Source: Jaminaea rosea (taxonomy: Eukaryota; Basidiomycota; Exobasidiomycetes; Microstromatales). From it: a stretch of 64,000 nucleotides of DNA. Each line of letters opens with the position of its first letter. Within the stretch, counting starts at the first letter, position 1. The DNA is taken from positions 490,076 to 554,075 of the forward strand of contig NW_020289987.1 in the NCBI RefSeq assembly GCF_003144245.1. Reading direction: 5' to 3'. The notes beneath the pieces were generated by a model that was not told where the DNA came from, did not search any database, and saw only the letters and a program-made list of their open reading frames with translations. Of this stretch, positions 1,946 through 33,402 are shown in pieces. The position numbers and the translations under genes were made by a program.

Positions 1946-2172
1946 TGTTGCTCCTGTAGAGGGGCGAGGAGGAGGTGTTTGAGGAGAGGGGGGAAAGGGG
2001 AGAAGGTCTGATCCCCGGATGTCAAGCGACTCCACTTTCGCACACGAGGGAGTTGAATTATCTCGGACGGACAGAGACGGACAGACCAGATCGCGGGCGG
2101 AAACAAGAAACGGGAAGCTCATCTTGTCCTCGAATCCATTCATCCATCCATCCATTCGATATCCCTCGCAGC
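1946..2172. promoter_or_regulatory. Divergent promoter, PAQR gene / FHA gene
   Basis: 227 bp between the two start codons. A CATC-rich tract (around 2139-2160) lies just before the FHA gene start. No specific factor site is claimed. Confidence 0.4.
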
Positions 2173-3176: not shown

Positions 3177-3371
3177 GTGAAGGATGGAAGGCATCGATAC
3201 CGTGATTTGATTGAGTGTGAGAGCAATGAGGCTGGCCCAAGCGTTGCGTTGCGTCGCTCCGTCGTCCAACACCAAGCCAAAGCCGCGGCCCGCTCGCTGT
3301 CCGTGCGTGCGTCCTTCTTGACTTCCTTCACGTCACTTTATTCTATCATCCTTTTCCCCCCTTGCATAGCC

Positions 3372-14201: not shown

Positions 14202-15192
14202 GACGTTCTCCGCATCTCCACGATGAACATGACGACGAGGTGACGATGTTTATCTTTTGCACACCTTCTTCCCTCCATTCCATCCTGCGAGCTGAATGCT
14301 CGACGCTGCGCTATGGTCTACACTATTTTTATTCGCCTCCACTCACGCACCTGTTATTCAGTATTATCGTCTTGTCCTTCTTCTTCGACTCTGCATAGAT
14401 CTCTTTATACCTCGCTGCTCTTGAAAATTGCGTACCTGCTTATCCCTTACACAGGACCGGTGTGTGCTCTGCGAATTACGAGGTCGAGATCAAGGTCGAC
14501 GTCGACGTCGAGGAGGAAGCCGTAATGGCGATTAAGGTCGCGCCTCGTGCCTCTCCTCGCCTCGTCGCTACGGTACTGTACAACACTCTTCCTTGTCCTC
14601 ACAAGCTCAACCGTCACTCATCGTCAGTACCGACCAGCATCGAGATCAACTCGATTCTGAATTGATGAATGCTCAAGGACCACGCCACAGAAGGGGAAGG
14701 CTGAGTCAAGAAGAGGAAAAGAAAAGAAAGGAACGTAAGGTGGGGCAGGTGGGAACGCGGCCAAGCCTCTACCGGTATGGATGGAGGCTGGTAGGGAAAA
14801 GAGAAGAGAGGAGAGAGGAGAAGGAGCAATAGACTTCTTTTTAAGCTCAAATGGTGCTTTGAAGCAGCCTCGTTGGGGCCTGGTGGTGTGGTGTGGTGTT
14901 GGGAGAGAAGGGAAGGAGTTGGAAGAGGTGGCCCGTTCTACGGCGATGAGAGGTGAGGAGCAAAGCTTGTCAATTTTGGGTGGGTGTCTTGCAGTGGTAG
15001 TTGAGGTCATGCTCATTGTTGAGCTGGTGTGTCTTGTCGAATCGAGTTCGAGGTGATGGCATTGTGCCGTAGGCTGGTATCACGGTGCGGATGAGCTGAG
15101 GTAGGTGGGTACTGTATTGCTGCTGCTGGTCGTGTCTTTGCGGCTGGAGATCGAGTATGATTGGGACTGGTGAGCCTGCTTCTAGGCTTAGT
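14202..15192. other. Convergent intergenic region
   Basis: Lies between the 3' ends of the BTB-like gene and RNase H-like gene A. It holds short purine-rich and GTCGAC-repeat stretches (about 14495-14515) but no supported gene. Confidence 0.4.
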
Positions 15193-16014
15193 TTAGTGAG
15201 CGTTGATGTAAGGGACAGGGACCTGCCTGTCCTGAGCAGCACGGCGGACTGCGTCCTCAGCGAGCCTAGCGAGCGAGCGACGAAGGCATGAGGAGCAGAG
15301 CCAGAGTCAGCTTCCCATTATCTCGACACCATCTGCCTGCTTGGCAGCCACGACAGCGCGCACTCACTTGGCTGCTTTCTTGATCTCCTTGCCCGGCTTC
15401 TCGACGTGGACAAATTCGACGGTGTGGCCAGCAGAGCGACGCTGCTTGACTGCCTTTTTGATGTCAGCCATGAGCTCAAGGGTGGCAGGAGCCTCGTCCT
15501 CGAAGGCGGTGAAGCGCACTGTGCTCGTGACGCTGGGCGGCGAGGGGAGTTGATGTGGTCTGAGTGCGGAGAAAAGAGACAGAGTAGTGGCGCGGCACGC
15601 GGGTGCTCACCACTTGACAGCAAAGTCATTGTCTGACTTGATGACTAGGTTGGCAGAGGGGGCAGCATCGAGGAGACGATTCAGGGCCTGTCCCGCGAGG
15701 AGTGGACCGCTCGACGATGTTCAGCTCGAGCTCAGCTCTATCATCTCCCCGCCGCTCGCACTCACGTAGAGCTCAGCCCAGTGACTATTGTCAGTACGAG
15801 GCGCGAGAACCTGCTCGCTCAGATTGTGGTGTCGGTAATGCCCGTCTTCGTAGTAAATGCCAATACCAGCACGACCATCGGCGGCGATGAGGCGGGAAGG
15901 AGAGGAGCTGTTGCTGTTGTTGTTGCTGGTGGGCGAGGAGCCGCGACGGCGGTTAGGAGTCGTGGTGCCCTTGACCGGCGAGGACGAGCCGTGAGTCCAA
16001 ATGTTAATGGGCAT
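15193..16014 (-). CDS. RNase H-like gene A (divergent, probably inactive)
   Basis: Four exons (16014-15766, 15687-15611, 15532-15368, 15265-15193), 187 residues. The first active-site Asp is His (NIWTHGSS), Glu is kept (WAELY), the third position is Asp (IKSDND), and the GH-x-G and final Asp region is replaced by VEKPGKEIKKAAK. A 25-residue Ser/Asn/Thr insert sits after strand 1. It alone has an extra intron inside the usual second exon. The last exon (LAEDAVRRAAQ) keeps the array's L-A-x-x-A start, which is why it belongs to the family despite low similarity. It marks the left edge of the array and points away from gene B. Likely a non-catalytic relative. Confidence 0.8.
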
Positions 16015-16614
16015 CTTGATGAGAGAGTGTGAGGCAAGGCACGTCTTTGTGAGAGGAGTCTTGAGGGTGATGAGGACGAGAGACAAAGGGAGTGATGAGC
16101 AGGAGGGAAAGAAGAGAAGAGGGATCCAGCGAGCGAGCAGTCGCTGAGCTGGCTGAGTCTCTCACTCCGCCAAGAGACTCCGAGTCAGTGTCGTCACCGC
16201 CACTCAGCGAGGCTCAGCCAAGCTCAGTGGTCGACGAAGCCACCGTCAGCTCTTCCTGTCGAGACCAACAAGGAGAGCAATTTGCTGACGCCCGCTTGAC
16301 ATCAGCTTGCCCGCCCGCCCGCCCGATTCTCGTCCTTTCCGAGCTCGAGTGTTGGTCTCGCATCCAGCCAAAGACGGCCTGTGTCTCCCTCCTACTTCCG
16401 TGTCAGGGTCCGCTTTGAAGCCGCGATGTCAAGTTTAGTCGCACATCGAGTCGCGGCTCTCGCGACGGCACATCAAAGGCGGCTCGTGCGGCACCAGATG
16501 GAAGGTCCATCAGCACCCGTCTCACACACGCTCACCTTCGCCTCCAAGAATGCCGCTTTGGCCCCTTGTTGTATCTTCTGCATCTTTTACTCCTATCCAA
16601 CCCATCCTCTGATC
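16015..16614. promoter_or_regulatory. Divergent region between RNase H-like genes A and B
   Basis: 600 bp. The part nearer B (from about 16283) matches the upstream part of gene D in blocks: GCTGACGCC-GCTTGAC, GTGTTGGTCTCGCATCCA, and a block ending in AGCACCCG. This shows that the promoter was duplicated with the gene. A CCCG repeat occurs at about 16310-16325. Confidence 0.5.
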
Positions 16615-17351
16615 ATGACTCTTCCAACGACCACCTATATCATCTACACCGACGGGGCCTGCCACGGCAACGGCGCCAATCCAGCGCTCCGGCAGGCGGA
16701 AGGTGCCATTGGCATCTATAGCGAAGATCTCGACGTCATGGAGCGACTTCCAGAGCAGATGCGTCCTCATACTGCAGACAAGTCTGAATTTTGGGCGAGT
16801 GGAAGCAGCTCTTTGTCCCATCTCTGTACAGTAGCTGACGATGCCCCTTCTCCCCCTCGCGACCAGGCCATCTACCGAGCGCTGCAGGAGGCTCCGCCCA
16901 TTCGACCGCTTCTGATCAGGACGGACTCAACACAGTGCATCAATACGCTCACCATCTGGTACTACGAATGGGTCGCACACGGCGGGCTCAAAACGAATGG
17001 GCGGAAAGACAAGAACTACAACTTGATCCGTGACATCATGGATGAGATTCTGCTGCGCAGATCACGAGGCCAGATGGTCAGCTTCAAGCACGTTTTGGGC
17101 CACTCGGGAAATGTTGGCAATGAGAGAGCGGACATGTTGGTCATTGGAAAAGAGCCTTCATCGAGACAAAAAAGATAGTGAGCTGACCGCTGCTACCTTC
17201 CTCCCTGCACCGGCCTCCTCGTCCGCTCGCAATCAGGCTTGCTCAATTGGCGCTGCAGTATCCAATCGTTGACGATGTCATTGGTTGGACCTATAGGTAC
17301 CCGGTCAGGAGCAAGGAGCAAGAGCGCGAACTTCCCGATGTCTCTCTCTAA
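16615..17351 (+). CDS. RNase H-like gene B (all catalytic residues present)
   Basis: Exons 16615-16794, 16867-17135 and 17237-17351, 187 residues. Active-site residues: IYTDGAC (Asp), KSEFW (Glu), RTDST (Asp), GHSG-NERAD (His and Asp). The first intron would use a GC donor (TGG|GCGAGT) with a normal CAG acceptor; because it is 72 nt, failure to splice would insert 24 residues after the Glu helix start without breaking the frame. The second donor is weak (AT|GTTGGT); if unused, the frame ends 16 codons later at 17176-17178. When spliced, the tail is LAQLALQYPIVDDVIGWTY, nearly the same as that of gene D. Presumed activity: cleavage of RNA in RNA/DNA hybrids. Confidence 0.8.
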
Positions 17352-17704
17352 CCACACGTTGGACGGCCGATGCTTCAAGCTGCGATACTGTCCAGCGGCA
17401 TGCGCAGCGCAACCCAGCAATGGGCTTGTCTCTCTTCTTGCTTACAGTAGCGTCGCCTATGAGTCCAGTTTAACACCGTGGCATCGGGCAAAATTTTCGT
17501 CTGTCTCCATGTACTGTAAGCGCTGTCACCGTCGTGTCTTGATGCATGGTACCAATCAGCACTTGTGACCCAGCCGCGGCTTGGCCGAGCGTAACGACAG
17601 AGCAAGCCGCTTTCCTGCCTTTCCGTTTGCCCCTGCTGCGCGTTTCTCATCTTGTCCTCACGACCATCACACTCAATTCGCTACCTCAAGAACAACACGC
17701 GCTC

Positions 17705-18330
17705 ATGGCTCCGCTCGTCATATACACCGACGGTTCTTGCCCAGGCAACGGCTATCCATACGCTCGAGGCAGCATCGGTGTCCACTGCCGCTTGTTTGAG
17801 CTCAGCGAGTCGCTGCCTGAGGACATGCGTCCTCACACCAGTCCAATGGCTGAGATGTATGTGGGTAATCAACTTTGCGAGGCAGCCTCCAACTTTACGA
17901 AGGGGAGAAAGCTCACCCCTCACCTCTCTCGCCCAACACACGCAGGCCATCCTTCGCGCCCTCGAAACGGCCCCCTGGACTTCCCTCACGATCCGCACCG
18001 ACTCCGAGCTGAGCGTCGACATTTGCAATGGCCTCGCTGACCGCTGGAAGAACAATGGCGGCAGGACCTCGTCGGGCAAGAGGCCCGCCAATTGGGATCT
18101 CGTCGTTGATGTGATGCAAGAGATTACCAACTACCGCTGCAATGGGCATCTGATCAAGGTCGAGTATGTGCCTGGCCATGCTGGTCATCCGGGAAATGAG
18201 AGGGCTCACAAGTGAGTCTGTAGGGCTATGACCTCGCACATCGAGCAGCATGCTCAATCCTCTTGACCTCCACTATTGGCCTCTTGCACCCAGCCTCGCT
18301 CAGGGGACCGCCCTTCCTCGTAGCCGCTAG
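17705..18330 (+). CDS. RNase H-like gene C
   Basis: Exons 17705-17860, 17946-18211, 18294-18330; 152 residues, essentially a bare RNase H domain. VIYTDGSCPGNG gives the first Asp, AEMY the Glu, IRTDSEL the third Asp, and VPGHAG the catalytic-loop His; the final position is His (NERAH) instead of Asp. The handle (WKNNGGRTSSGKRPANWDL) is close to E. coli RNase HI in layout. The tail is only about ten residues after LAQ. Splice sites are TAT|GTGGGT, CGCAG|GCC, AA|GTGAGT, CCCAG|C. It sits between the duplicated pair B and D, so it was either trapped by or precedes that duplication. Confidence 0.87.
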
Positions 18331-18932
18331 GCTCAGAGCATGCCGCGCACCACGGCAGACGATCGTCCTCCTCCGCAGACTTGTCTTGCGGCCCAAAAGC
18401 TCGACATTTTTGCCCCTTATCCTGTTTTCTCGACAAGATCTTTTCACCTCGCCAACTTGACAAGATCAACAACAGAGGCAACCTAGCATTGAGGTGCCTC
18501 GTCTCTCTCTCTTGCACTCGTGCTCGCCGCGAGTTACAGAGCATCCCATGATTCCTCTTCTTGCGATTCGCTTGTGTTTTCAATGTCAATCATTCAGCCG
18601 CCTGTTGAGCGTTTCTGATTCGACACAGTAAAGTAAGACATTGGCTGACGCCTGCTTGACGCTCGCTCGCCCGCTCAAGCCCGCCCGTGTTGGTCTCGCA
18701 TCCAAAATGCCACCCTTTGCCTGTCCCCCACTTCCCACTTCCAAATCTCACTCCTCTCCTTGACGCTCGTGCGACTCGACGCGGCGACACGGTCAACGAT
18801 GGCGGCCCGTGCGGTGACACATGGAAGCTCGCTCAGCACCCGCTGATCCCATGTTCCACTCAGTGGGTCGGAGGCGACGCTTGGACCTCTTCTCTCTTTC
18901 GATACGACAATCATCTACAACTGCTCTCTGCA

Positions 18933-19634
18933 ATGAGCTGGTACATCATCTACACAGATGGGGCTTGTCGGCGAGGAAAAGACGCTGATCCGCGATACTC
19001 TGAGCTACAATCGGAGGCAGCAATTGGTATCTTCACGGAGGATCACGATGTTCTCGAACGACTGCCAGACACTATGCGTCCTCACTCTGCTATCAAGGCT
19101 GAGTTCTATGTGGGTCAATCGAGGCTTCCAAGCAAAGTTGGTCTGTTCCATGCTAAGTCTCTACAATTCCTCCGCACGACCAGGCAATCTTCCGCGCTCT
19201 CGAAGACGCCCCACCTCTGCGCCCTCTCCTGCTGCGCACCGATTCAATGCAATGCGTCGACTCTCTGAACAAGTGGTACCACCACTGGAGACTCAGCGGC
19301 GGCTTCAAGACGGATGGAAGAAGAGTGGCCGATTGGGGGCTGATTCAGTCGATCATGCAAGAGATCCTTCAACGCCGAGCCCGCTCTCAGGTGGTGAGGG
19401 TCGAACACGTATTGGGGCATTCGGGTGAGAAGGGAAACGAGAGAGCAGACCTGTGAGTCAGTGGAGGTGCAGGCGATTGCTCACCTGGCTCATCACGCTG
19501 CTCCTTGACCCGCTTCATTCCGCAGGCTGGCTAAGCTGGCGCTGCAGCAACCTATCATCGACGATGTCATTGGCTGGACCTATACGTACCCAGTCGCAAA
19601 CAAAGGGGTAGAGCGCGGCGGGCCCCATCTCTAG
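18933..19634 (+). CDS. RNase H-like gene D (all catalytic residues present)
   Basis: Exons 18933-19109, 19184-19452, 19526-19634; 184 residues. Active-site set: IYTDGAC, KAEFY, RTDSM, GHSG-NERAD. It is the closest relative of B: shared elements include the ERLP-MRPH segment, the handle GGFKTDGR, the LAKLALQQPIIDDVIGWTYTYPV tail (differing at few positions) and upstream DNA back to about 18643. Unlike B, both of its introns have normal donors (TAT|GTGGGT and CT|GTGAGT), so D shows the ancestral splicing of the pair. Expected to be a functional cytosolic or nuclear RNase HI. Confidence 0.87.
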
Positions 19635-19985
19635 TTCTCAGTGGTCGCTACATTCACGAGCAATGCTATTGCCAGGCTCATTTCATGCTCATCTCCTCTG
19701 TACTCTTATGATTCACCTCACATTGAGCAGATGACGACGCGGGTTGGCTCTGCTCTTTTTGTCCTTCACTGTATCGCAAGCTGTTGCACACATTGAGCGT
19801 CCCTTTGACAATGTCTGCGCAGCTACGTCAGGTAGACCGTGGCGATGCTGTGACCGAGCAAGGCCAAGTCGGCTTTGCGGTCTCCCCGCCCGGCATCGCA
19901 GCACGAACAAGCAGATACATCTTCTCTCGCCCCTTTCCTTCCCTTCTCTCCACACAACATCGAACGATCACAGACATTGCAAACC

Positions 19986-20670
19986 ATGAGCAACAAGTAC
20001 GTTGTATACACCGACGGAGCTTGCCGCGACAATGGCTCTCGCACCCGTCGCCCCGAAGGCGCCATCGGTATCACCTCTGAGCTCGGCGACGTCTCTGAGC
20101 GCCTGCCTGAGAGCATGAGGCCCCACATCAACAACAAGGCTGAGCTTTGGGTGAGCGACCGAGTGCAGTACTGTGTTTCCTCAAAATCGCCCACTTGACG
20201 ACTGACAGTGCCTCTTTGCCCGTCGTGAACCACCACCAGGCCATCTACAAAGCCCTCCGCGCTGCACCCTACCACAGGCCCATCGAGCTGTGGACCGACT
20301 CTTCGGACTGCGTTAACACCTTCACCGACTGGTTCTGGGGATGGGAGGACAATGGAGGACGCAAGGCGAACGGTCAGCCCGTCGCCAATTGGAATCTGAT
20401 CTGCGACATAATGAAAGTCATTCGCTCTCGCCGCAACCAGACCATCAATTTCGGTCATGTCCCTGGTCACGCTAACGTGGCCGGTAATGAGCGTGCTGAT
20501 CGGTGAGTGGCCGCAGAGACGAAGGAGATTGAGAGCCGCCTTGAGAAGAGTCGACCTGACAATCAGAATACCCCGCCTCTCTTCCATCTTCACTCAGTCT
20601 TGCCCGCCAGGCTCTACCCTCCGAGACGACGCACATCGAGTACGCGGGCTACGCTGCCGCCTACTACTAG
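19986..20670 (+). CDS. RNase H-like gene E (all catalytic residues present)
   Basis: Exons 19986-20150, 20240-20502, 20598-20670; 166 residues. VVYTDGACRDNG, NNKAELW, WTDSSD and GHAN-NERAD supply the four acidic residues and the loop His. The N-N-x-x-E-L spacing is the canonical RNase HI one, making this one of the best candidates for an active enzyme. The third exon is short and aromatic at the end (YAGYAAAYY), a Tyr-rich finish also seen in F, G and I. Splice sites: TGG|GTGAGC, CCAG|GCC, CG|GTGAGT, TCAG|T. Confidence 0.88.
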
Positions 20671-21262
20671 GTAGTGTCGACTGAGCCACAAGCCACTACA
20701 GTCTGAAAGATGACGACTCCGCGTTCTGCTTTTTCCCCTGCAGTCACTCCCTCCAAGACCGCCTATCTGGGTTCCCCCATCGTGGCTAGCAGCGCAGGCA
20801 GTCCAGCGTTGAGTCTTTTCTCTCTCTCATTCAAGCTTCGATGTACTTTTAGCACGACCGTCTCTCCCCTCAACACCAATCCCATGTTTCCCCTCACCAA
20901 TGCAGCGCAACGCCATCTCCCTCTTCCTTCTTCCCCACACGCGCGTCGCGACGAGCTGAGGATCGCCCTCGCTCCCACGGTGTTGCTTTGTTCGCCTCGA
21001 CACGCTCGCTCGCCCCGCTCGATTAGGACGCACCAGCCTGCCTGCCTGCCTGCCGCCCGGCCGCCCGACCCAGATCCGCCCCGCTCCCACTTGACTTCCC
21101 CGCAGGCGCGCTTGCTTGCTTGCTGCACGACGTGCATGACTCCGAGTAGATTAGACGAACAAAGAAAGCTCTCACTAGCGCACGGTGCTCAACATCCAAG
21201 TAGCTGCGCACGAGGACGTCCCGCTTCTTTCCTTTCTATCCTCCCCATCACTCCTGCCTGCC

Positions 21263-21941
21263 ATGCCCCCTGCCTGCATCATCTACACCGACGGCGCCTG
21301 CGTCAACAACGGCTCGAAGAACCCTTACAACCCAGGAGAGAGCGCCTTTGGCGTGTGCGCTCCTTGGGGGGATCGCTCTGGACGTCTGCCAGCCGATTTG
21401 AGGACTCATACCAGCCAGAATGCTGAGCTCTACGTGAGTAGTCGCTGAGCGAGCTCGTCCTGGCATCTGTGCGCTGACCACCTTACGTATCTCTCTACCC
21501 TCTCGGCGCAGGCAATCTACATCGCCCTCCGTCAGGCGCCTTACGATCAGACGCTCCTAATCCGCACCGACTCGAGCTACAGTGTCAACACCCTCAATCA
21601 ATGGTGCTGGAAATGGCGCAACCGCGGCGGGTACAAGTCGGATGGTAATACGCCTGCCAATTGGGGCCTCGTGCAAGCCGTGATGGGCCAACTCGAGGAT
21701 CGACGCGAGAATGGTCAGAGAGTCCATATTGAGCATGTACGCGGGCATGCTGGATTCGCAGGGAATGAGAGGGCGCACGAGTGAGTATCATAGGTGAGGC
21801 TGTGCGCCACTTTCAGCTTCTCCTGCTGACCACCCTTGCCCTCCTCTTCACCCACACAGTCTCGCCCAAAAAGGCCTGCCCCTCCAGCGCAATGACTCGC
21901 CCCAGTCTTCGTACGACTCCGACTCCGACTACTACTACTGA
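21263..21941 (+). CDS. RNase H-like gene F
   Basis: Exons 21263-21433, 21512-21780, 21860-21941; 173 residues. IIYTDGACVNNG, NAELY and IRTDSS keep three acidic residues; the fourth is His (GHAG-NERAH). The handle is intact (WRNRGGYKSDGNTPANWGL). The tail after LAQKGL is Ser/Asp-rich and ends DSDSDYYY, a small version of the long acidic Tyr-ended tail of neighbour G. F and G are convergent, with 416 bp between their stops; that gap shows no further gene. Confidence 0.88.
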
Positions 21942-22357
21942 TAGTCTCGTCGCGAGTCAGATGAGCTCGCTGTTGCGTCCTCATGCCGGGCCTCTGCCGG
22001 TGGATGTCCACAGCAGCTCGTCTGTACCAAACGGCCCTGGCGGCCATGTTCTGTGGCTTCTTCCTTTCCTGTGCCCCTTACCCTGCCTATCTTTCCAGCT
22101 TGACCTCTTTCATCCAATCCGATTTTTGGCCCCTTCCCCGCGAATGGTGTGACGTCGCACCTCACAGCCTACTGTACTTCGAGCTGCCGAATCTTGAACA
22201 TCCCGTTTGTGCAGGGGAGCAGACTGAATGAGCCGGAGGAGTCGTCGTGCACAACAGGGATGGATTGCTGTAAGCCGCACCGCAGTGCGAAACAGGGTTG
22301 AGCGCGAGTATGTGAGTGAGGCGTGGGCCTTGGCGTCATATGAGGAGCTTCCATGGC

Positions 22358-23630
22358 TCAGTAGTAGTCGTCCTCGCTGTAGCTTTCTCCGTCGCTGGAT
22401 CCTCCTCCGTCGCTGGAGCCTCCTCCGTCGCTGGAGCCTCCATCACTGTACCCTGCCCCATCATCATCCCCTCCGTCGTCGTAACCATCATCAGAGCCTG
22501 CAATATCAGAGTCGGACCTGTCAGCAACATCTCCCTCATCGACCACGTAGTCGGAGATGTCGTACCCATCGATGGTGAGGCCTTCGGAGTCCTCACTACC
22601 GCTATCGTTGTCAGCATAGTCAGCGCCACGGTCGCTCCCATCGTCGACGACTGCCTCAGCGTAGCCGCTGCGCCCAACATGGCCGTTGTCGCGAATGTCG
22701 ATCTGAGCAAACCCGCTCAAGGCCACAACTTGATCATTGTGACGAGCCTCGTAGTAGCCGGTGTGCGCTCGGGGGGTCTCCCTGTGGGTGGCGGCCTGAA
22801 TGTAGCCGCTTGTGCCCCTCTCGTGCTCCTCGTAGGGGATGTGCTGAGAGTAGCCGCTGTAAGTAAAGGAGGTGCGATGGCTCTCCTCGAGACTCGAGCT
22901 CGGGCTGACGCTGCGAGGACTGTCCCTCTCGTGCTGATAGATGCTCTCCCGATGGTGTTCGCCGCTACATCCATCAGATGCGTTGCTGGTGCTGAAGTAT
23001 TGATCCTCTTGATCGAAGCCACGTTGAGCGAGACTGCACAGAGGGGAAAACAGTAAAGTGTGAGCAAGCAGGTGCTGGCAAGCCCCTCGATTCTCTCAGC
23101 CGTTTCACTCACTCGTGCGCCTTTTCATTGCCCGCATCCCCGCTATGGCCCCTCACAGGCTCAAAGAGCACCTCCTGGCCATACTCCCTACGACGCTCAA
23201 TCTCCCTCATCGTATCCTGAATCAGATCCCAATTGGCAGGCTCGGTTCCTGCCTTGGTGCGGCCACCCCGTTCAAGCCACTGCCTACCTCGCTGCTTAGG
23301 GCCAAATGTCTTCTCGCGATGGTCCGAGTCGGTGCGGATGACAACGGGTTTGTCGTCGAGAGGGGCAAGCTTGAGACCTCGATTGATTGCCTGTCAGCCA
23401 GCGTAGGGTCACACAAGGACATGAGCGTCGATTGAAGGCAGGATGTATGCACGGGCTACTCAACGGCACCTGCTCACCGCATGCTCAGCCCTATTGCTAG
23501 TCTGCCTCTCAGTCGGAGGAAGACGCTCTGAGATGTCACCGTACTTGGAAGAGACGCCAATAGCCGCACGAGCACCATCTTGGCCATTGCCGCGGCAGGC
23601 GCCATCGACGTCGATGACATGCTTTGACAT
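22358..23630 (-). CDS. RNase H-like gene G with a 226-residue acidic C-terminal tail
   Basis: Exons 23630-23478, 23390-23113, 23033-22358; 368 residues, about twice the others. The domain keeps Asp (IDVDGAC), Glu (RAEHA) and Asp (IRTDSD), has the loop GHSG, and has His at the fourth position (NEKAH). The third exon starts LAQRGF and runs on for 226 residues rich in Ser, Asp, Glu, Gly and Tyr, with recurring SGY/GY/DY motifs and four near-copies of a SSDGGG unit (from a 15-18 bp DNA repeat at about 22375-22445), ending EDDYY. Such a tail is expected to be disordered; its role is unknown. G is inverted and shares a 344-bp promoter region with H. Confidence 0.86.
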
Positions 23631-23974
23631 GTTTGTGAAGGATTGATGGCGAAAGAAAGAACGAAAGCAAAGAAGAAAGAGCGGCAAGGCGGCAAAACGC
23701 GTTTCCCGCTGCTTTCCGCTGTGACCGTAGAGAGAGCCACGGGTGGGCGGGCGGATCGGTCCTGGGCTCATTCAAGTCCGCGGGGGCGGCGACGGCACGA
23801 CACAAGGGCGCACGGCAGCTCAGCACGCTCAGTCACACCTTGCCTTCGCACCACAATCTCCTCCCATCCGCATCTTGTCCGAATCATTGCCCCAGTCTTC
23901 GATACACGCAGACCAGTCTCGCGCATCAAACTCTCTCTTGGCTTCTGCTTGCCTACCTCGAGTCGTTTGCCACC
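23631..23974. promoter_or_regulatory. Divergent promoter of RNase H-like genes G and H
   Basis: 344 bp between the two start codons, the only head-to-head pair inside the array. It contains an A/G-rich block near G (about 23645-23695) and a pyrimidine-rich block before H. No known factor site is assigned. Confidence 0.45.
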
Positions 23975-24605
23975 ATGTTCCGTCTCGCCGAACCCTACAT
24001 CGTCTGGACGGATGGCGCCTGCCACAACAATGGCCGTCATGATGCCGAAGGAGCTTATGGCGTCTATTCGGAGTCTGTGCTCATCTCCAAGCGTCTCTGC
24101 GATGTCTGCATGCGCCCTCACACTAACAACAAGGCCGAACTCGTGGTGCGTACAGTACCGAACCCGAATCTCAATCAAACCAGTGCGCTGACCAACTTCC
24201 ACCCGCACTCGCACCCCCTCTCGCAGGCTATTCAAGCAGCTCTTCACAGCCTGCCCCCACGCATCACAGCCGTCATTGTACGCACCGACTCGGAGCTCTG
24301 CGTCAATATCATCAACCGCTGGCACTTTGACTGGGTCAAGAAGGGTGGAGTCAACGCTCAGGGCAAGGTTCCTGCCAATTGGACCTTGATCTGCGACCTG
24401 ATGGAGAGGATCCACCAGCTACGCAATGATGGTATGTCCGTCGAGGTGGAGCACGTCAGGGGGCATGCGGATGATTTTGGTAACCAGCAGGCGCACATGT
24501 GAGTAGAGAGCGAGAGGGCAGGGAGTGGCAGGGATTGACTGCTAACGCGCTTCTGCTTCACGACGACACCGTACCAGGCTTGCTCAACGAGCACTCAAGG
24601 CTTGA
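23975..24605 (+). CDS. RNase H-like gene H
   Basis: Exons 23975-24145, 24227-24498, 24578-24605; 156 residues. IVWTDGACHNNG, NNKAELV and VRTDSEL keep the first three acidic residues; the fourth position is His (NQQAHM) and the loop reads GHADDFG. The first intron is 81 nt and free of stops in frame, so an unspliced form would add 27 residues at the same place as in B; its donor is GTG|GTGCGT. The tail is the shortest of the array, ending seven residues after the L of LAQ. Confidence 0.87.
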
Positions 24606-25291
24606 ACTGAGCGTGCAAGGCTCAGGTTGCCCTTCAAGATTGCATCGTCCGTACACACTCCCACTGCGCCGCTCACCAAGGCCAAGACACTCAGCCGTGA
24701 ACACGCAGGCCAAGCCCCAGTGGCATCAACCAACCAAGCACAGCGCTTCCCATGCCCCGGTTTGCGCTCTCGTCGTGGCTAACACGAGCCCCGAAATCTC
24801 TACCACGCATCTTCATTCTACCCCTCTGCATGTAATACCGCCTCCTCATCCTCATAGTCTCCATTCTATCCTGTTGTCCTCTGATGTGCCAGCTTCGCTT
24901 TGCGGCAAACAAAGCTAGCAAGTCTGATCTGATTCTTGTTTGCCTATGCCGGCCTGAGAATGTCCCACAGAAATCTGCATCAGTGCTCACAGCTCACCGC
25001 CACGGCTCTGACCCCCTGCTCTACCGTATCCATCTCCGGCCCAGGCAAGGTCGTGGTACAGGAGTGTTGGTTGGCCTCCCCGCCGCTTCTCCGCTTCTCC
25101 GCCTCCCCGCTTCTCTGCTTCTCCGTCTCTGCGCCTCCCGCCCCCACCTCGCTGCCCTGCAAGAGTGAGTCCAACACTTTTGGTCCGATCCGCCCTACAC
25201 CGCCGTCGCGCCGCTGGATGCATCTTGACTTGCTTTCCATCTCACCACCCTCACCCCACCCCACACCGCACCACACCACATCATCGTCACG

Positions 25292-25963
25292 ATGGGCAAG
25301 GAACACGTCATCCACACCGACGGCGCCTGCCGTAACAACGGGCGCGACAACCCTCAAGGCGCAATCGGCGTCCACTCTGAGCGTGGCAGCATCTCTGAGC
25401 GTCTTCCCGCCTCCATGGAACGTCACACCAACAACATGGCTGAGCATGCGGTGCGTCTCCTGCTTTTGTGCTAATCGTAACGATTCACCTCCGACTCAAT
25501 CGGGCCCACCCTCCCATCGCACACAGGCCATCAATCGCGGCCTCAAGTCCGCTCCCTACGACAACAACCCCGTAGTCATCAAAACGGACTCGGAGCTCTG
25601 CCAAAAGACTTTTGGCGGGGGCTGGGCACAGCAGTGGGAGCGCAATGGCGGGCGCACGGCTGGAGGCAGCAAGCCAGCCAACTACGACTTTGTGCAGGAC
25701 ACAATGAAGGAGGTCAACTATCGCAGGTCCCAGGGACAAGATGTGCGCTTCGAGCATGTGAGGGGCCATGCCGGTGACAGCGGAAATCAGAGGGCGCATG
25801 AGTGAGTTCAAGGGCGCGAGGGTTGAGGGAGAGATGAGAAGATACAGTATGCTCACTTCACTTTACTTCACTTCACTTCACTTCACTTCACTTCGCTTTC
25901 AGCCTCGCTCAGCAAGGACTTGGGCAGGGAGCACCTCAGTACAAGTACGGGGGCCGCTACTAG
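25292..25963 (+). CDS. RNase H-like gene I
   Basis: Exons 25292-25450, 25527-25801, 25903-25963; 164 residues. VIHTDGACRNNG, MAEHA and IKTDSEL keep three acidic residues, with GHAG present and His at the fourth position (NQRAHE). It shares ERLPASM, AEHA and AINRGLKSAP with J, and AEHA/AINRGLK with G, so G, I and J form a subfamily. The second intron is dominated by a TTCAC pentamer microsatellite that forms its pyrimidine tract. The tail ends YKYGGRY. Probably catalytic unless the fourth-position His abolishes activity. Confidence 0.88.
25852..25893 (+). repeat. TTCAC pentamer microsatellite inside an intron
   Basis: About seven to eight imperfect ACTTC/TTCAC units in a row immediately before the acceptor of the second intron of gene I. 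Length changes here could affect splicing. Confidence 0.8.
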
Positions 25964-26596
25964 TTTCGCGGCACCCGCACGGGCACAGCTTCAGACTCAA
26001 CCCAAACGTGATCTCGTCTACAATTCCTCGTCTCACGCCGTTTCGTACCCTGTCGCTTGACACACTGTACTTCAGCGGCAGCACAAGCAGCGTTGCGTCG
26101 AGATGATCCATCTGCTCCTTTCTCCTCTCTCTCTGTATATCCAACTCAATGAGCGACCAGGGCTGCCGAAGCGCTCCCTCGCCGCTATTCTTTCTCGCTC
26201 AAGAGCTCTCATCCCAGTCAATCAAAACAGCTTCATTACTTGAACCTTTGGCCGACCGACGCTTCATCATCAACCCTCCCTCTCCCACACAATCTACTGT
26301 ACTGACGGTCGCCCAGCTTCGAGCCAAGATCATCTCGATCTGCCGAGGGCTTCTACACCATGATGGGACTGGTCATAGGCGACGTTGATCAGGCGCTCTA
26401 CAAGCGAGGAAAGCTACCGAGTCTTTCTCATCAACTCAGCTTCGTGGTCATCACTCGCAGCAATATCAGCCCGACGAGAAGCTGACCTGCTTTCTCTCTC
26501 TCGAGATCCATCTCAGGTGGTCTCGCTCGGTACAAAAGCCAATCACCTCCTTTTCCTCCTTTCTCCACGAAGCTAACCAGTCTCTTCTTCACCACC

Positions 26597-27245
26597 ATGG
26601 GCAAGCGCCATGTCGTCCACACTGGTGGAGCCTGCAAGAACAGCGGGGGCAGCAGCCCAAAGGGAGCCATTGGCGTCCATTCTGCTCGCAGCAACATCTC
26701 CGAGCGTCTTCCTGCTTCAATGGGACGCCACACCAGTAGCATGGCCGAGCATGCTGTGAGTCACGCTTCGAAGCCAAGATGCTAAATGGCCTGGGCTGAA
26801 TTGTGATCTCTCACGCGCTTTGACAGGCCATCAACCGCGGCCTCAAGTCTGCACCCCACGACGGCAAGCCCGTGGCGATCAAGACTGACGCGCAGAGCTG
26901 CCAGAAGACCTTGAGCGGCGGGGGACGGGCTCAGCAGTCCGCGTCCAGCGGTGGTGGTAACAAGTCCGGGGGTGGCAAGTCTGCCGAGCAAGCCTTGGTG
27001 AGGGACACGATGCGCGAAGCTGGTCAGGGTAGGTCGGAGGGACAGAATGTCCACTTCGAGCACGTCAAGAGTGGGGGCAGCGCGGGGAATGTTCTTGCTC
27101 ACGAGTGAGTGCAGGACGGTCGCGTGTGAGTGTCGCGCTACGACTCGCTGACGAGTACCTCCCTCTGCTCTCTACGCGCGGCAGACTCGCTCAGCAGGCC
27201 CTTCAGCCCGGGCAGGCCCGGTCTAAGCCGACCAATGGCCATTAG
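26597..27245 (+). CDS. RNase H-like gene J (degenerate active site)
   Basis: Exons 26597-26755, 26827-27104, 27185-27245; 165 residues. Sister of I, but the first Asp is Gly (HTGGAC), the third motif is KTDAQS, the GH-x-G loop has become KSGG, and the fourth position is His (VLAHE). The handle is replaced by a Gly/Ser/Lys run (SASSGGGNKSGGGKSAEQA), so the usual W-x(n)-W scaffold is gone. All splice sites and the reading frame remain intact. This looks like an expressed-capable but catalytically dead paralogue, or a young pseudogene still without stops. Confidence 0.82.
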
Positions 27246-27758
27246 CGCTCGCATCGAGTCACGGTGCTGATCAAACCCAATCTCGTCACACTGAATCCTC
27301 GTACCGCTTCGTCACCGTCCGCTACTCACTTCGACGGCAGCTCAAAGCTGCGTCCAGATTGTGCTCTGTCTTTCATTCATTTCGTATCAATTTGACCATC
27401 ATCGCTGAAGTCTGCCGACTCATCACTTTCCTCAAAGCTTTCCAAAGCTCAGCCTTCATCACGCGACCACTGAGTCGACCCGTCTCATTTGCCGCTAGAA
27501 CCAACCCGAGCTGGTTCGTTCAGCTCACTGGCCAGCCCACTCGCTCGTCGCTTTCATTCCTCGCTCGTGTCGTGGTTCTACAGTACTCCCATCCAGCGAA
27601 AGCTGTTTAATCACTCGTCCCTGCGTGTGCGCTCATCATCTGCGACTCGTGTCTGCAATAGGCAAGTGATATGATCTGCAAATTTCAGAATGTGAGATAT
27701 GAAAAGGCACCACCACCACACATTCGTGAACACCACCTTAAGATCACCCCCTTCAGCG

Positions 27759-28456
27759 ATGAGCTACGCTGCAAACACATTGATCGTCTACGCTAAGGGT
27801 GTTGTCCACTCGCCTCCCAGCACTGGTGGTGCCATCGGCGTGGTATTCGAGGGCACGTACTGTATCAAGAACTTTTCAGAGGAAATATTTGATGCAGCTG
27901 GCGATATGACCGAGACCAGAGCTGCCTACTGGGTGAGTTTGGAGCACAACGATAAGCCTGCATTATTGCTTTGCTGAATCCATAGCGAGCAGGCCATCTT
28001 GCGCGCTTTGGAAAAGTCGCCCTCGTTCGATCTTCGGACGCTCGGCCGCGAGATCCATATCCTCACCGAAAATGAGCTATGCGCTACGACGCTAACGCTG
28101 TGCAAGCTCAAGGGAAACAGTAAGGAGGGAAGCTTCCTAAGCTCCAGGCCCTCGGACGACGACATGATCAGGCGCATCATTCACCTGCTCAATATTCGCT
28201 CATCGGACGTCGTATACTTCGATTACCTGGACTCCAAGCGTCCGCGAGAGGCCAGTCGTGCAACAGAGCGAGTTCTGTGCTATCAATCACGTACAGGAGA
28301 AGACTGACTGAATCGCTCTGTGACAGCCTGGCCAACCAGGCGCTGCAGCAGACCAACGGCAAGGACGTTGAGCAGTCTGGCAAGTCCGAGAGCAGGGTGG
28401 AGCGCCTCAGCATCCAGAGCGAGTCCATCGAAGACGGGCAAGTCGCGCAGAAATAG
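27759..28456 (+). CDS. RNase H-like gene K (pseudoenzyme)
   Basis: Exons 27759-27932, 27993-28276, 28327-28456; 195 residues. The fold outline survives (LIVYAKG, GAIGVVFEG, AAYW, AILRALEKSP, IHILTENELC, IHLLNIRSSDVVYFDYLD), but the four catalytic positions read Lys, Ala, Glu and Leu. The first junction is standard (TGG|GTGAGT). The second donor is an inferred CT|GTGCTA, chosen because it gives the family phase 2 and the L-A-N-Q-A-L start of the last exon. The tail is long and Ser/Glu/Gln-rich. The frame is open throughout, arguing against a simple dead gene. Confidence 0.75.
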
Positions 28457-28803
28457 GCTCTGCTCCAACCTGTGCAAAAGTTACCGCATGGTGACGTTGG
28501 CAAAGTCACATCCGGCTCAGGTAGTTTGCCTTCGTGACATTCAGGTCTCTGCGTCTCCTTTGCCTGTTGATTGCCTTACTTCCTTCCTGTCGATCTGGCC
28601 TCTTGAATAAACGTGCTTCTCACGATGCAAGATGGACGCGTGAGCTCATCATCCGCAGGATCGACTTCGCGCCACCTGCGAGATATGCCGCAAAACGCGG
28701 AAGTGGCGAGACAAGGATCAAAGGGTTGGCTACTCTTTCTCTTGCTTCCCTACCACAACCGCTCAGCTCTACCCTCAAACAAGTCCCCATCTAAAGCAAC
28801 ATC

Positions 28804-29576
28804 ATGGGCGACTCGAGCGAGGAAGACCACCTGCCCCACTTCGATATCTTTACGTACGGCGAGCTCGATTCGGTCTCCTCTCGCGCAGTCATCGCCGTCT
28901 ACTTTGCCGCGCGTCACTATGGCGACCACGACATCTCTGAGCTCGTACCTACGGACATTGGTCCCGTTACTACCGCTGCGGCAGGTTACTGGGTGAGCAT
29001 GCTGAGCAATGTAGCACGTCATTGAGGGGTGCCCCATAGCTTACTGGGCGCTGTGTCTCTCTCCTCGGTGACGCAGGCAATTGCACGCGCCCTAACGCGA
29101 GCCCCTGCTGCCGCCAACATTGTCATCTATTCCCAGATCGAGGCTTGCGTCCAGAATCTCCTCCTTTGCATCAAGACGTGCAGCACCTATCACGACCACT
29201 CGCAGAGAAAGCTTGTTGAGCGCATCTTGAACAATCTTCGGGCGCGCAAGAAGGCGGGAGGTAGTGTCAAATTCAAGTTCGTCGATACAGACTTGACTCC
29301 CAGCCATTCGAACACGAAGCTTGCTAGGCGTCTTGCTTGCCTAGACATTGCTCGTCAGTGAGTCCGCTTGCGGGCGTTGCAGAATTAAAAAGCCACACCG
29401 TTGACCTATAGCTGCTGCTCTACGCTCTTAGACTGGCTCGGATCACTCTACGCGATGCCATCGAGAAGTCCGATAAGGCTCAAGAAGAGAACGCCAGCGA
29501 TAACCAAGGCGAAGAGGACAATGAGGACGGAGCCATTGACCTCTTGAGCTGCGCAAGCACCTCTACCTACACGTGA
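28804..29576 (+). CDS. RNase H-like gene L (pseudoenzyme)
   Basis: Exons 28804-28992, 29077-29357, 29432-29576; 204 residues. Membership rests on the two intron positions and phases, the block AIARALTRAP after the first intron, and LARITL at the start of the third exon. Catalytic positions read Tyr (FTYGEL), Gly (AAGYW) and Gln (YSQIE), with no GH-x-G loop. The N-terminus has an acidic MGDSSEEDH start; the tail is acidic (EENASDN, EEDNED). Splice sites are canonical. Its nearest relative is M. Confidence 0.75.
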
Positions 29577-30134
29577 AGCTGGGCGCCATCCCAACCATCA
29601 AGCCTCCTCAGCACGACTCGGCGAGCTCCTCACAGCGGTGTGGCTTTCAACCTCGTCTCGTGCTTGCGGCAACTGTACGCGAGCAGGCCCACTCGTGCGT
29701 CAACCCCTGTTCTCCATTCTGCTCTTTTCTCCTCCAGGTCCATGTCCAATACAATCACTTCTCTGTCGCAGCGGCGATGCACGGTCGACAGACCCGCTTC
29801 CATCCCAACAGCACTCATGCTTTCACCGGACCGCATCGCCAAAGCTTCACCCTTGATCCGTCTCAGAAGCGCATGCTGCTGCTCCAGCTCGCCATCATCC
29901 CTGCCTCCGCGTGCTAGAGCTCAGCTCAGCGTGATCACGTAGGGAGTGCAGCAATGTCTCGACTGGATACTGAGACACGAAGCAGCTCGCCTGTCTTCGA
30001 CCTTTGACGTCAGACAATGGCCAGTTTGAAGCCGGGCGCAGAACTGCGAGCGAGCTATCCTTGCTTCCCTCATCTGCCGGACCTCGACGCTTTGCTTCTG
30101 CCTCCCCACAGCTTCCTCACCACTCCAGCCCATC

Positions 30135-30707
30135 ATGTCCTGGTCTAGCAAGGATGACGTGCCAATACTCACCGTCTACGCTAGTGGAGCACACGACGAA
30201 GCCAGTGGCCAAGCAGCCATCGCTGTCTTCCTGGCCCAGCGCGAGTACTCAGACTACGACAAAAACGAGCTGATGACTCTCCCTCTTGAACCATTTGACG
30301 TAGTCCTAGCCGGCTACTGGATGAGCTCCTCGACTAAGGACATGGACCGTGAGGTGTTGACTGACGCGCAGCCGGCTCTCCAAGGCTATTGCTCGCGCTC
30401 TGACGCGCATGCCGTCCGTCGCCCGCATCTCCATACGTTCGAGCAACGAACTCTGCGTCAGAGATCCGCTACTCGCCTCTACGTGTCTTTCGCCCTCGTT
30501 TCCACATTATGATGCTCATCTGTCTCTGTCTCTCGTCGCTGCTCAAGAGAGGTACATTTAAATGTTTGGTCGAGAAGCAAGAGAAGAATTGACCGGGGGG
30601 CGCGAGATGCTGATCTGGCCTTGCCTCTTCCTCTCGCACGCACGCACAGCCTGGCAGGCATAGCCTTGGATGATCAGGACGCAGAGCTGGCACGAGGGCA
30701 AGCGTGA
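30135..30707 (+). pseudogene. RNase H-like copy M (broken first donor, shortened second exon)
   Basis: Homologous pieces lie at 30135-30320, 30385-30551 and 30650-30707. The first piece resembles L (IAVFLAQREY, LAGYW); the second begins AIARALTRMP and IRSSNELC; the third begins LAGIAL. The expected donor after TGG is ATGAGC instead of GTGAGC, and the 64-nt intron is not a multiple of three, so unspliced reading shifts frame and stops at about 30512. The second exon is about 110 nt shorter than in other copies, lacking the region after the third active-site position. If the first intron could still be removed, a 136-residue product would result. Catalytic positions read Ser, Gly and Ser. Confidence 0.65.
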
Positions 30708-31187
30708 GCGTGAGCGTGCCTGAATGCGGATGATGAAGCAAAGAAAGAAGGCGCGCTCGCCCGCTGTCGTCTCCCCTCGTGAGGTTGCGAGCTCGTCACC
30801 GGGTGGAGCGAGGGAGCAACTGCCGCTTTCCATCTCCATCGAGCCCGCTCCCCTCGTCACGCCACTTTTGTACCTGCTTAGCTAGCCGCGCTTTCCTTTG
30901 AATTATCTTGTCTCGCCCTGCTCGCGCATGCTGTGGTGGTGGAGAGAAAGGTGAAAGGACAGAGAGAGGGAAAGGCCAAACCTCGGAAACACGCAGCGGG
31001 GGCCTGCGTGCGGGGAAAGGGCGAGAGCTCAAGCCGTCGCCTTCGGTAAAAAGCTCGAGTCGGATCTTTGGGCCGCGCCCATCTGCTCCCTGCCCAGCGC
31101 GCTTCTTGCCTTCCTACCACGACGCATGCATGGCGCACGACATCCAGCCTAATCATCAGCGCCCTCACCACTTCCATCTCCATCGCC
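30708..31187. other. Array right border and upstream region of the Zn2Cys6 gene
   Basis: 480 bp with no supported gene. Purine-rich around 30945-30985 (GAGAGAAAGG-type). The RNase H-like sequence ends here; nothing like a boundary repeat was recognised. Confidence 0.35.
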
Positions 31188-33402
31188 ATGCCACCAGTCG
31201 CATCGTCGAGCTCATCAGCGCACGCACGCGGTCCCTACGCGCGTCTGACCTGCCAACAATGCAGGAAGAAGAAGCAAAAGTGCTCCCTACCAGTGGGCAC
31301 GACGCCTTCCCCGCATCCTTTGCCGGCCGGGCATAGGTGCGATCGTTGTGTAGCAGGTGGTCTGGTTTGTGTACCTTGGCGCGGTCAAGAAAGTGCTGCG
31401 AGTGCGAATGCAGCGGGTGGGAGCGGGACACAGACTCCTCGTCAGATAGCTGATGACTTGGCTCGAATCGCCCCACGGGCATCCAACGGAGCAACGTCTT
31501 CTTCAGCTGCCTCCTCTTCCTCTGCGGCGCTCAACCCTCCTGAGCCTGGCAGACCGCTCAGCTTGATCAACACGCACGTCACCGACTTGCTGCCTGGGAT
31601 GTGCTCCTTTCTACTTCAACACGATAAGTTCGGTAGCGATGCGCTCGGTGTGCCAGAGGGAGAAATGACCTCGCTGCACGACATGGCAGGAGGCGTCTAC
31701 CCTCCAGGCATTGATAAGTCGTGAGTATAGCGCGCGAGCAGCAGCTGCATTCAGCCTCCTCCTGACCATGCTGTGCTCTCATTCTCGCGCACTTCGCCAC
31801 AGCGTGGAGCAATTGCGCCTCTTCCACCCTCACATCTCCAAGTTCACAACCGTCTACGAGGAATGGCAAGACCAAATCCTCTCTCGCGATGCGTACGGGC
31901 GACGCCTCACTTCGAAGCCGCACCTATCCAGCCAACTTCTCCTAGCTACCCTACTCTGGCTAGCCTACCAGCGTATGGGCGGCACGAGTCTCATCTACGA
32001 GGAGTCGCTGATCGCCATCATCAGGGAGACGGCCGAGCAGCTATGCACGGTTCCTTCTCTGGCCGACAAAGGCTATGCCCCGCAGGCTTTCGAGCTGCTC
32101 TTTGCTTACTTTCCCCTCGCACTGCGGCGTTCCCCGCGGGATGAGGCCGGGCTAGCCGGTGAAGCAAGGCGACGCCCCCTTGTGCTCGGCAGCGAGATGC
32201 TCCGCACCGCCTACCGTCTGGCGCCTACAGGGACGGACCCGGACTGTCGGGACTTTTGGTGCACTCTTGCCAGCATCACCCTCCCGTCAAGCATAGACAA
32301 CGTTCCGCGTCAAGTACCGAGCAGCGTGACCCCCTTCCAGGAGCTAGGCTGGGCTTGTATCATCAATCGGACGAATCTGATGCGAAGCGCTATAGATCAG
32401 GAAAAGGAGGCCAAATTTCTCAACGACGACCATGCTGATCAGCCGGAGCGATTCGCCCGCAACTTGCAGGAGTGTTTTGAGACGTTCAAGGATCGGGTGT
32501 GGGATCTGCAAGGGGACCTGACCGACGAGCTCGAGGCGGCGCAGTTAGATTGGAGGGATGGCGCTCCACCGTCGGGGGAGGTGAAGCGCATGTTACACGC
32601 CCAATTCGAGCAGCTCTGTCTGTGCGTGAGCGTTAACTTCGCGACGTACGTGGGCTGTCTAGCTCTGCGGGCCGCGGGCTCCTGGCGTGGGAGGATGACG
32701 GCGGGGACTTTTAGTCGGGAAAGGGCACGTCGAGTCATCGCGGTGGATGATGAAGCGCTCAGTTGGGTCAAGGAGCTTCTCGCCACCCTTTCGTCCCACA
32801 TCGACCAATGGGTGTCACGAGCCCTCACCCTCTCCAACCTCCTCACGGACTGCGCAAATCTGCAATGGTGCATCCCCAAGGTAGAGCGAGCCTTGATGCT
32901 CTCATCCCTCACCAGACTCACCTTGCAGCGCGTCGGAGGGTTGATCCTCTTTGCCTCGGAATCGGACCCGCACTCGGACAGCTCGCAAAGCGCAGAGGAG
33001 ACGCGCGCGTTTCTCGACTCGCTCGTCATCCTCCTCGAGTCGGCCGCAAATGCCACACTCAAAGGCGCGGAGATTGTTGGCGGGGATTTTGCGCAGCAGC
33101 AAAGGGAGGAGTGGATCGAGTGGGCGATTAAGGAGGGGGACGTCCTCGTTACCGCGGGCGTGATGGCGCTGCGTGGTGTCGAGGTGTTGAAGGGGTGGAG
33201 AGCGAAGATGTATGATGCGAGGTGGGGCGAAGGGAGTGGGGAGGGGCTGGAGAAGTGGTGCAGGTTGGACGGGTTTGAGGAGGGGGAGGTGCTGCGTTTG
33301 CTTACTGGTGGGGAGGGAGGTGCCGGGGCCGCTGCGATTGGGAAGGAGGAGCTGAAAGACTTGCTTTTCTTGGCGGCGCAGGGAGGCGTGGAGGCCGAAT
33401 GA
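31188..33402 (+). CDS. Zn(II)2Cys6 fungal transcription factor
   Basis: Exons 31188-31720 and 31803-33402, 710 residues. The binuclear cluster is at residues about 20-60: C-QQ-C-RKKKQK-C, a long loop of about 18 residues, then C-DR-C-VAGGLV-C. A Ser/Ala linker follows, then an all-helical fungal regulatory (middle-homology) region including LLLATLLWLAYQRMG, LLFAYFPLALR and LGWACIINRTNLMR. Nuclear DNA-binding regulator. The start was placed at MPPVASSS, the nearest Met before the cluster; a Met 40 residues upstream is in frame. It is the first gene beyond the RNase H-like array; no evidence links the two. Confidence 0.88.

What the first reader, a model, noticed from the sequence alone, without database searches (positions are those of the whole stretch)
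15193..30707. A 13-gene array of RNase HI-like genes in a fungal genome
RNase HI is normally a one- or two-copy housekeeping gene in fungi. Here 13 diverged copies sit side by side over 15.5 kb with no other gene between them, regular 1.05-1.3 kb spacing, and the same two intron positions and phases. No reverse transcriptase, integrase or LTR was seen, and the shared introns argue for DNA-level duplication of a host gene, not for retroelement fragments. Possible roles (all inference): removal of RNA/DNA hybrids of retroelements, dosage under replication stress, or a rapidly evolving recognition system. I know of no described system of this form.
Basis: partly seen in the sequence, partly recalled or inferred. 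Interest (0 to 1): 0.92.

Follow-up and report, generated by a model that had tools for sequence, protein, structure and literature searches.

The report
Fungal tandem array of RNase HI genes
A yeast-like fungus carries a row of thirteen old, diverged copies of an enzyme gene that normally cuts RNA out of RNA/DNA hybrids; about eight look like working enzymes and the rest have lost the catalytic site, and why the fungus keeps them is unknown.

Summary
The window is the end of a Jaminaea rosea contig (Ustilaginomycotina). At 15193-30707 I model 12 spliced RNase HI-like genes plus one decayed remnant. Ten of 12 pass the Pfam RNase_H cut-off; the other two are caught by an array profile and hhalign. 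AlphaFold of one copy gives a confident model with RNase H-like order of strands and helices. Three public proteins match my models, two completely. Exons are under purifying selection; introns are near background.

Corrections: eight copies, not 13, keep the core catalytic residues, and five of these have His for the fourth catalytic Asp. Four modelled copies are pseudoenzymes, the 13th is a remnant, and two copies are inverted. A related gene on another contig shares intron 1. The fungus also has a normal RNase H1 and RNase H2.

Best reading: an old birth-and-death tandem array of small RNases HI without the hybrid-binding domain, most of them probably active on RNA/DNA hybrids, with partly specialised roles. 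Activity, expression and cellular role are inference.

The parts
15193..16014 (-). g01, RNase HI-like pseudoenzyme, 187 aa, exons 15766-16014, 15611-15687, 15368-15532, 15193-15265; first Asp, catalytic His and fourth acidic residue lost
   Evidence: (PF00075 27.9 bits, cut-off 25.8); the extra intron is my inference
16615..17351 (+). g02, RNase HI-like, 187 aa, three exons; D-E-D-H-D intact; intron 1 is GC-AG
   Evidence: (8.3e-22); first 142 aa equal NCBI P0003
17705..18330 (+). g03, RNase HI-like, 152 aa; D-E-D-H with His at the fourth acidic position
   Evidence: (4.3e-20)
18933..19634 (+). g04, RNase HI-like, 184 aa; D-E-D-H-D intact; closest to g02
   Evidence: (1.8e-19)
19986..20670 (+). 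g05, RNase HI-like, 166 aa; D-E-D-H-D intact
   Evidence: (4.8e-27)
21263..21941 (+). g06, RNase HI-like, 173 aa; D-E-D-H with His at the fourth position
   Evidence: (5.4e-24); identical to NCBI protein P0001; AlphaFold pLDDT 91.1
22358..23630 (-). g07, RNase HI-like, 368 aa with a tail of 221 aa, 54% of it D, E, S and G; D-E-D-H with His at the fourth position
   Evidence: (3.1e-15)
23975..24605 (+). g08, RNase HI-like, 156 aa; D-E-D-H with His at the fourth position
   Evidence: (1.1e-21); identical to NCBI protein P0002
25292..25963 (+). g09, RNase HI-like, 164 aa; D-E-D-H with His at the fourth position
   Evidence: (3.4e-21)
26597..27245 (+). g10, RNase HI-like pseudoenzyme, 165 aa; first Asp is Gly, catalytic His lost; sister of g09
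   Evidence: (3.2e-8)
27759..28456 (+). g11, diverged RNase H-like pseudoenzyme, 195 aa; acidic catalytic residues and His not kept; weak last donor (GTGCTA)
   Evidence: no Pfam hit
28804..29576 (+). g12, diverged RNase H-like pseudoenzyme, 204 aa; acidic catalytic residues lost
   Evidence: no Pfam hit
   Evidence: g12 matches at E 4.5e-7 and 0.015

Best explanation
This is an old tandem multigene family that has evolved by birth and death. One intron-bearing RNase HI gene without the hybrid-binding domain was duplicated at DNA level, mostly head to tail, with two units inverted. [quoted passage not shown] Three use the D-E-D-H-D site and five a D-E-D-H-H site. The copies differ most in the last exon, so I infer that they share the chemistry but differ in location, partners or expression. 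g01, g10, g11 and g12 have lost the active site; g13 is dead. Shown: homology, predicted fold of one copy, splice pattern, purifying selection, and the presence of a separate canonical RNase H1 and RNase H2. Well supported but not certain: a single origin of all 12. Inferred: enzymatic activity, expression and cellular role.
For: PF00075 over its cut-off in 10 of 12 models. The array profile matches human RNase H1 in the PDB at E 2e-26 over almost the whole domain. AlphaFold of g06: pLDDT 91.1, strands and helices in the order E-E-E-H-E-H-H-E-H. D-E-D and His intact in 8 of 12. In 22 of the 27 printed pairs dN/dS could be computed and lay between 0.16 and 0.54; 5 were saturated. For g02-g04, codon positions 1/2/3 differ at 0.28/0.21/0.56 and dN/dS is 0.16. 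In 7 pairs tested, intron 1 similarity to shuffles is z -0.3 to 2.4 and last-intron similarity 0.6 to 2.9, while exon 1 reaches 4.1 to 16.3 in 6 of the 7. Tree: g02-g12 group at 97/93, and with g01 and the metagenomic protein P0005 they are set off from all other rows at 98/87. Public proteins agree for g06, g08 and part of g02.
Against: No activity or expression data. Five of the eight intact copies carry His where Asp is nearly universal (156 Asp, 6 His, 5 not aligned among 167 relatives). I recall that E. coli RNase HI with His or Asn at this position stays active, but a search for it found no held paper. The conserved handle tryptophan is Gly in all of g02-g10, so substrate affinity may differ. 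dS is above 1 in every pair with an estimate, so the ratios are rough. The branch that sets exactly the 12 models apart from the other 39 rows has support 96/54 only, and g01, g11 and g12 are long branches. g03, g04, g05, g09 and g10 are absent from the 120 proteins listed, so public support for these models is lacking.
Confidence: 0.68

Rival explanations
1. The array is a defence battery: diversified RNases HI that destroy the RNA/DNA intermediates of retroelements or other reverse-transcribing parasites, with inactive copies as regulators or baits.
For: The genome shows little reverse transcriptase: 5 RVT_1 places, one RVT_2 locus and 2 integrase places in 16.6 Mb, lower bounds. The copies are old and diverged. 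Open frames of g11 and g12 persist: only 8 of 20000 base shuffles of each stay open.
Against: Retroelement scarcity can have many causes; no direct link was found. One Argonaute locus is present, so an RNAi component exists. In the 22 printed pairs with an estimate dN/dS is below 1, which gives no sign of an arms race, although whole-gene averages cannot exclude single fast sites.
Confidence: 0.12
2. The copies are domesticated RNase H domains of a retroelement.
For: RNase H domains occur in retroelement polyproteins; g09 and g10 show weak RVT_3 similarity below the cut-off (E 0.059 and 0.0014).
Against: Shared introns in all 12 models. PDB matches favour cellular RNase H1 (E 2e-26) and RNase HI over an HIV RNase H fusion construct (3.4e-17) and other retroviral domains (2e-13 and weaker). 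No RVT_1, RVT_2 or rve match at E 0.001 on this contig. LTRs were not searched for specifically.
Confidence: 0.05
3. Passive tandem duplication: the array is drifting, and only a few copies matter.
For: g01, g10, g11 and g12 have lost the active site and g13 is decayed. From three pairwise values, my arithmetic gives dN/dS about 0.42 on the g10 branch against 0.08 on the g09 branch.
Against: Eight copies keep the site and frame at saturated or near-saturated synonymous divergence, which needs long selection.
Confidence: 0.2
4. Extra dosage of general RNase H1 under replication stress.
For: Intact core catalytic residues in eight copies.
Against: No homogenisation: the 26 closest pairs are 42-61% identical. 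The hybrid-binding domain is missing; canonical RNase H1 and RNase H2 are both present.
Confidence: 0.05

Closest known systems
Eukaryotic RNase H1 (human 2qk9; Jaminaea contig C4 gene)
   Same: RNase H domain, D-E-D plus His, alignment over nearly the full domain
   Different: No hybrid-binding domain, Gly for the handle Trp, extra residues in the loop before the catalytic Glu, frequent His at the fourth acidic site, introns absent from the C4 gene's RNase H domain
Bacterial RNase HI (E. coli)
   Same: Domain-only architecture and catalytic layout
   Different: Introns; array and bacterial rows lie in different parts of the tree
Jaminaea C1 paralogue (P0121)
   Same: Intron 1 at the same place and phase, and a GTGAGT donor-like site where the last intron of the array begins
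   Different: Single, dispersed; first Asp is His and the catalytic-His and fourth positions do not align; by eye they are replaced
Tandem birth-and-death gene families in general (recalled)
   Same: Diverged copies with living and decayed members side by side
   Different: I know of no such family built from RNase HI. Nine literature searches listed none by title or start of abstract; one search showed 8 of 99 papers

Membership tests
RNase HI (Pfam RNase_H, PF00075) | Profile match over the curated cut-off | tested here: met
   10 of 12 models; g11 and g12 not met
RNase HI (Pfam RNase_H, PF00075) | D-E-D-D plus catalytic His | tested here: inconclusive
   Full set in g02, g04, g05; His at the fourth position in g03, g06-g09; lost in g01, g10, g11, g12
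RNase HI (Pfam RNase_H, PF00075) | RNase H fold | tested here: met
RNase HI (Pfam RNase_H, PF00075) | Cleaves RNA in RNA/DNA hybrids | not testable with these tools
   Needs an enzyme assay
Canonical eukaryotic RNase H1 | N-terminal hybrid-binding domain (PF01693) | tested here: not met
   One PF01693 match in the whole genome, on C4; none in the 12 models
Retroelement RNase H | Linked reverse transcriptase or integrase | tested here: not met
   No match at E 0.001 on contig C13
Retroelement RNase H | Flanking LTRs or target-site duplications | not tested
   Only direct repeats of 40 nt or more in 14500-31500 were listed

The most novel reading that the evidence does not exclude
A fungus has built a dedicated, diversified battery of RNases HI lacking the hybrid-binding domain, with a D-E-D-H-H active-site variant and retained pseudoenzymes, that polices RNA/DNA hybrids of reverse-transcribing parasites or of specific R-loops, each member aimed by its own last-exon tail.
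Probability: 0.12. Interest if true: 0.78.

Novelty: new variant of a known kind. Interest (0 to 1): 0.5.

Why it matters
RNase H1 is generally treated as a one- or few-copy housekeeping enzyme (recalled). A genome that keeps about eight extra, apparently catalytic copies under selection, beside a normal RNase H1 and RNase H2, offers a natural test of what specialised hybrid-cutting enzymes can do. The Asp-to-His active-site variant and the retained pseudoenzymes are directly testable in vitro.

Tried and rejected
Retroelement origin was tested through family searches of the genome and set aside for lack of any linked RT or integrase. Loss of RNase H2 or of canonical RNase H1 as the driver was tested and rejected: both are present. 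A viral source was tested: the array profile finds only 29-38% identical relatives among the 80 listed of 381 viral loci, and the metagenomic protein P0005, a neighbour in the tree that also has His at the fourth position, has no confirmed relative there (3 stretches matched a pattern, none confirmed). The other five His-bearing relatives among the 167 are unnamed proteins of about 300-320 aa with what looks like a second RNase H-like half; they do not otherwise resemble the array.

Relatives in other fungi: the profile search scored 8000 candidates, found 4751 hits and listed 120. The top three are Jaminaea itself (257, 243 and 224 bits); the next is at 150 bits. Sympodiomycopsis kandeliae, of the same order, has its canonical RNase H1 in the database but no named array-like protein among those 120. 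Unannotated genomes and strongly diverged copies would be missed. No scan of fungal DNA beyond this genome was possible.

Weak or adverse results: the HCMV_UL116 match of an ORF at 28607-28993 (E 0.0029, below its cut-off) is chance in my view. The first residue table was misnumbered by one and is replaced. In one search Arg179 of human RNase H1 is matched in no copy, but read without the gap g07, g09 and g10 do have Arg two residues before the Thr, as in human. In the tree g01, g11, g12 and C1 are long branches, so their exact places are unsure. The last introns keep slight similarity (z up to 2.9). Of 44 flank ORFs printed I scanned 30, and of the ORFs inside or beside the array ten.
Full report
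WHERE IT IS. The window is bases 490076-554075 of contig C13 (554075 bases) of a 16.6 Mb genome in 21 contigs. Three proteins of the array are in public databases as 'ribonuclease H-like protein [Jaminaea rosea]' on a contig of exactly 554075 bases. Jaminaea rosea is a basidiomycete of the Ustilaginomycotina, Exobasidiomycetes, Microstromatales. The array lies about 33-49 kb from the contig end; no telomeric repeat run was seen in the last 3 kb (TTAGGG 0, CCCTAA 1), so a subtelomeric place is not shown.

OBSERVATION. I read every unit from the sequence and built 12 spliced models (g01 corrected). Intron 1 is always phase 0, 60-89 bases; the last intron is always phase 2, 50-102 bases. Donors are GT except g02 intron 1 (GC). 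g01 needs one extra intron, which is inference. g11 has a weak last donor. Three public proteins agree: P0001 equals g06, P0002 equals g08, and P0003, marked partial, equals the first 142 residues of g02, which spans the GC-AG intron. Whether those models rest on RNA-seq I did not see. The 13th unit is a remnant. Two units, g01 and g07, are on the minus strand. Ten further ORFs overlapping, between or just beside the units gave no Pfam match over a cut-off, so no other gene was recognised there; the remaining ORFs were not scanned.

FAMILY. PF00075 is over its cut-off in 10 of 12. The profile of seven copies finds human RNase H1 in the PDB at E 2e-26, E. coli RNase HI entries from about 6e-22 to 1e-18, an HIV RNase H fusion construct at 3.4e-17 and other retroviral RNase H at 2e-13 or weaker. 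AlphaFold of g06 with 35 sequences gives pLDDT 91.1 and pTM 0.85. g11 and g12 belong too: they beat 1000 shuffles and 197 control ORFs against the array HMM (24.5 and 30.8 bits against 13.3 and 4.3) and hhalign gives 98%.

ACTIVE SITE. In human numbering D145, E186, D210 and H264 are kept in g02-g09 (8 of 12). The fourth acidic residue, D274, is Asp in g02, g04 and g05 and His in g03 and g06-g09. Among 167 relatives it is Asp in 156, His in 6 and unaligned in 5. One structural paper has this Asp act together with the catalytic His in activating the water (PMC13310575, passages seen). A review states that in Sulfolobus tokodaii RNase HI a mutation of Asp125 lowers double-stranded RNA cleavage without a significant loss of normal RNase H activity (PMC9719913, passages seen); that Asp125 is the same position is my recollection. 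That the E. coli His and Asn variants are active is also recalled. g10 has Gly for D145 and lacks the His; g01, g11 and g12 have lost most or all of the site. Of residues that I recall as substrate contacts in human RNase H1, N151 is kept in 7, T181 in 6, W221 in 6 and N240 in 7 of the eight copies g02-g09; the handle Trp230 is Gly throughout g02-g10.

SELECTION. All 66 pairs of 12 models were computed and 27 printed: 26 with identity over 42% and the pair g11-g12. Where dS could be estimated (22 of 27) dN/dS is 0.16-0.54. Pairs with high identity are g02-g04 (0.16), g07-g09 (0.19) and g09-g10 (0.23). All dS values exceed 1, so these are rough. Introns are near background while exon 1 is not, except for g11-g12, whose exon 1 is also near background (z 1.9); last introns keep slight similarity (z 0.6 to 2.9). 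g11, g12 and g01 stay open where base shuffles of their coding sequence do so in 8, 8 and 73 of 20000. For g10 the open frame is weaker evidence: neutral simulations stay open in 423 of 4000 at 80 mutations.

ORIGIN. In a maximum-likelihood tree of 51 rows, g02-g12 group at 97/93. g01 joins them against the other 39 rows at 96/54, and the 12 plus P0005 stand against the remaining 38 rows at 98/87. The canonical RNase H1 of Jaminaea falls with Sympodiomycopsis and Sporisorium RNase H1 (100/98). The dispersed paralogue on contig C1 branches next to the array, has intron 1 at the same place and phase, and has a GTGAGT site where the array's last intron begins. Its search found only itself at E 0.001 among 814 candidates. 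The RNase H domain of the canonical gene on C4 is uninterrupted. The simplest history is duplication of an intron-bearing gene of this family, then tandem growth; whether the family arose from RNase H1 within this lineage or was acquired is open.

SETTING. Thirty of 44 flank ORFs were scanned and 12 had a Pfam match at E 0.001, all ordinary host families: HlyIII, FHA and alpha/beta hydrolase on the left; Zn-cluster, CRAL-TRIO, amine oxidase, Fringe-like, PCI, alcohol dehydrogenase and a second alpha/beta hydrolase on the right. The genome has one canonical RNase H1, RNase H2, one Argonaute locus, and few retroelement genes.

MECHANISM. Shown by sequence: a family of domain-only RNases HI, eight with an intact or near-intact site. 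Inferred: these cleave RNA in RNA/DNA hybrids. The last exon is the most variable part: in the nine copies g02-g10 tails run from 5 to 221 residues and four end in Tyr-rich sequence (g05, g06, g07, g09). I infer that the tails set location or partners. What the hybrids are is not known; retroelement intermediates, R-loops and mitochondrial hybrids are all possible, and no targeting signal was tested.

NOVELTY. Nine literature searches were made. The six papers naming Jaminaea rosea were seen as a search listing only. No title or abstract start in these listings describes an RNase H array; one search showed 8 of 99 papers, and subscription journals are mostly missing from the library. Tandem gene families are common, so I call this a new variant of a known kind.

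On re-reading, the support quoted for the array clade was mended (96/54 for exactly the 12 models). The finding and the odds did not need to change, because g02-g12 group at 97/93 and shared introns hold all 12 together.

Noticed in passing
L001 (contig C4:802999-806445): The canonical RNase H1 (hybrid-binding domain plus RNase H) sits in an 893-aa open frame that continues into a stretch which by eye resembles a RecA/Rad51-type ATPase; Pfam gave no match for it at E 0.01 in the 800 aa scanned.
   Followed up: partly
L009 (contig C10:597500-606500), minus strand ORF 1896-5945: A 1349-aa open frame holds an RNase H-like segment inside long low-complexity sequence.
   Followed up: no
window 22358-23033 (-): The g07 last exon encodes a tail of 221 residues rich in Ser, Gly, Asp and Glu that ends in EDDYY; four array proteins end in Tyr-rich sequence.
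   Followed up: partly
window 15193-30707: Public annotation may lack separate correct proteins for g03, g04, g05, g09 and g10: they are absent from the 120 best hits of a search in which they should lead; merged models over about 290 aa would not have been candidates.
   Followed up: no
window 16471-16519 and 18794-18842; 17234-17343 and 19523-19632: g02 and g04 share similar upstream and 3' sequence (upstream z 8.6), so their duplicated unit is larger than the coding region.
   Followed up: partly
end of window (contig C13 end): The contig ends in non-telomeric sequence with a short repeated motif.
   Followed up: no
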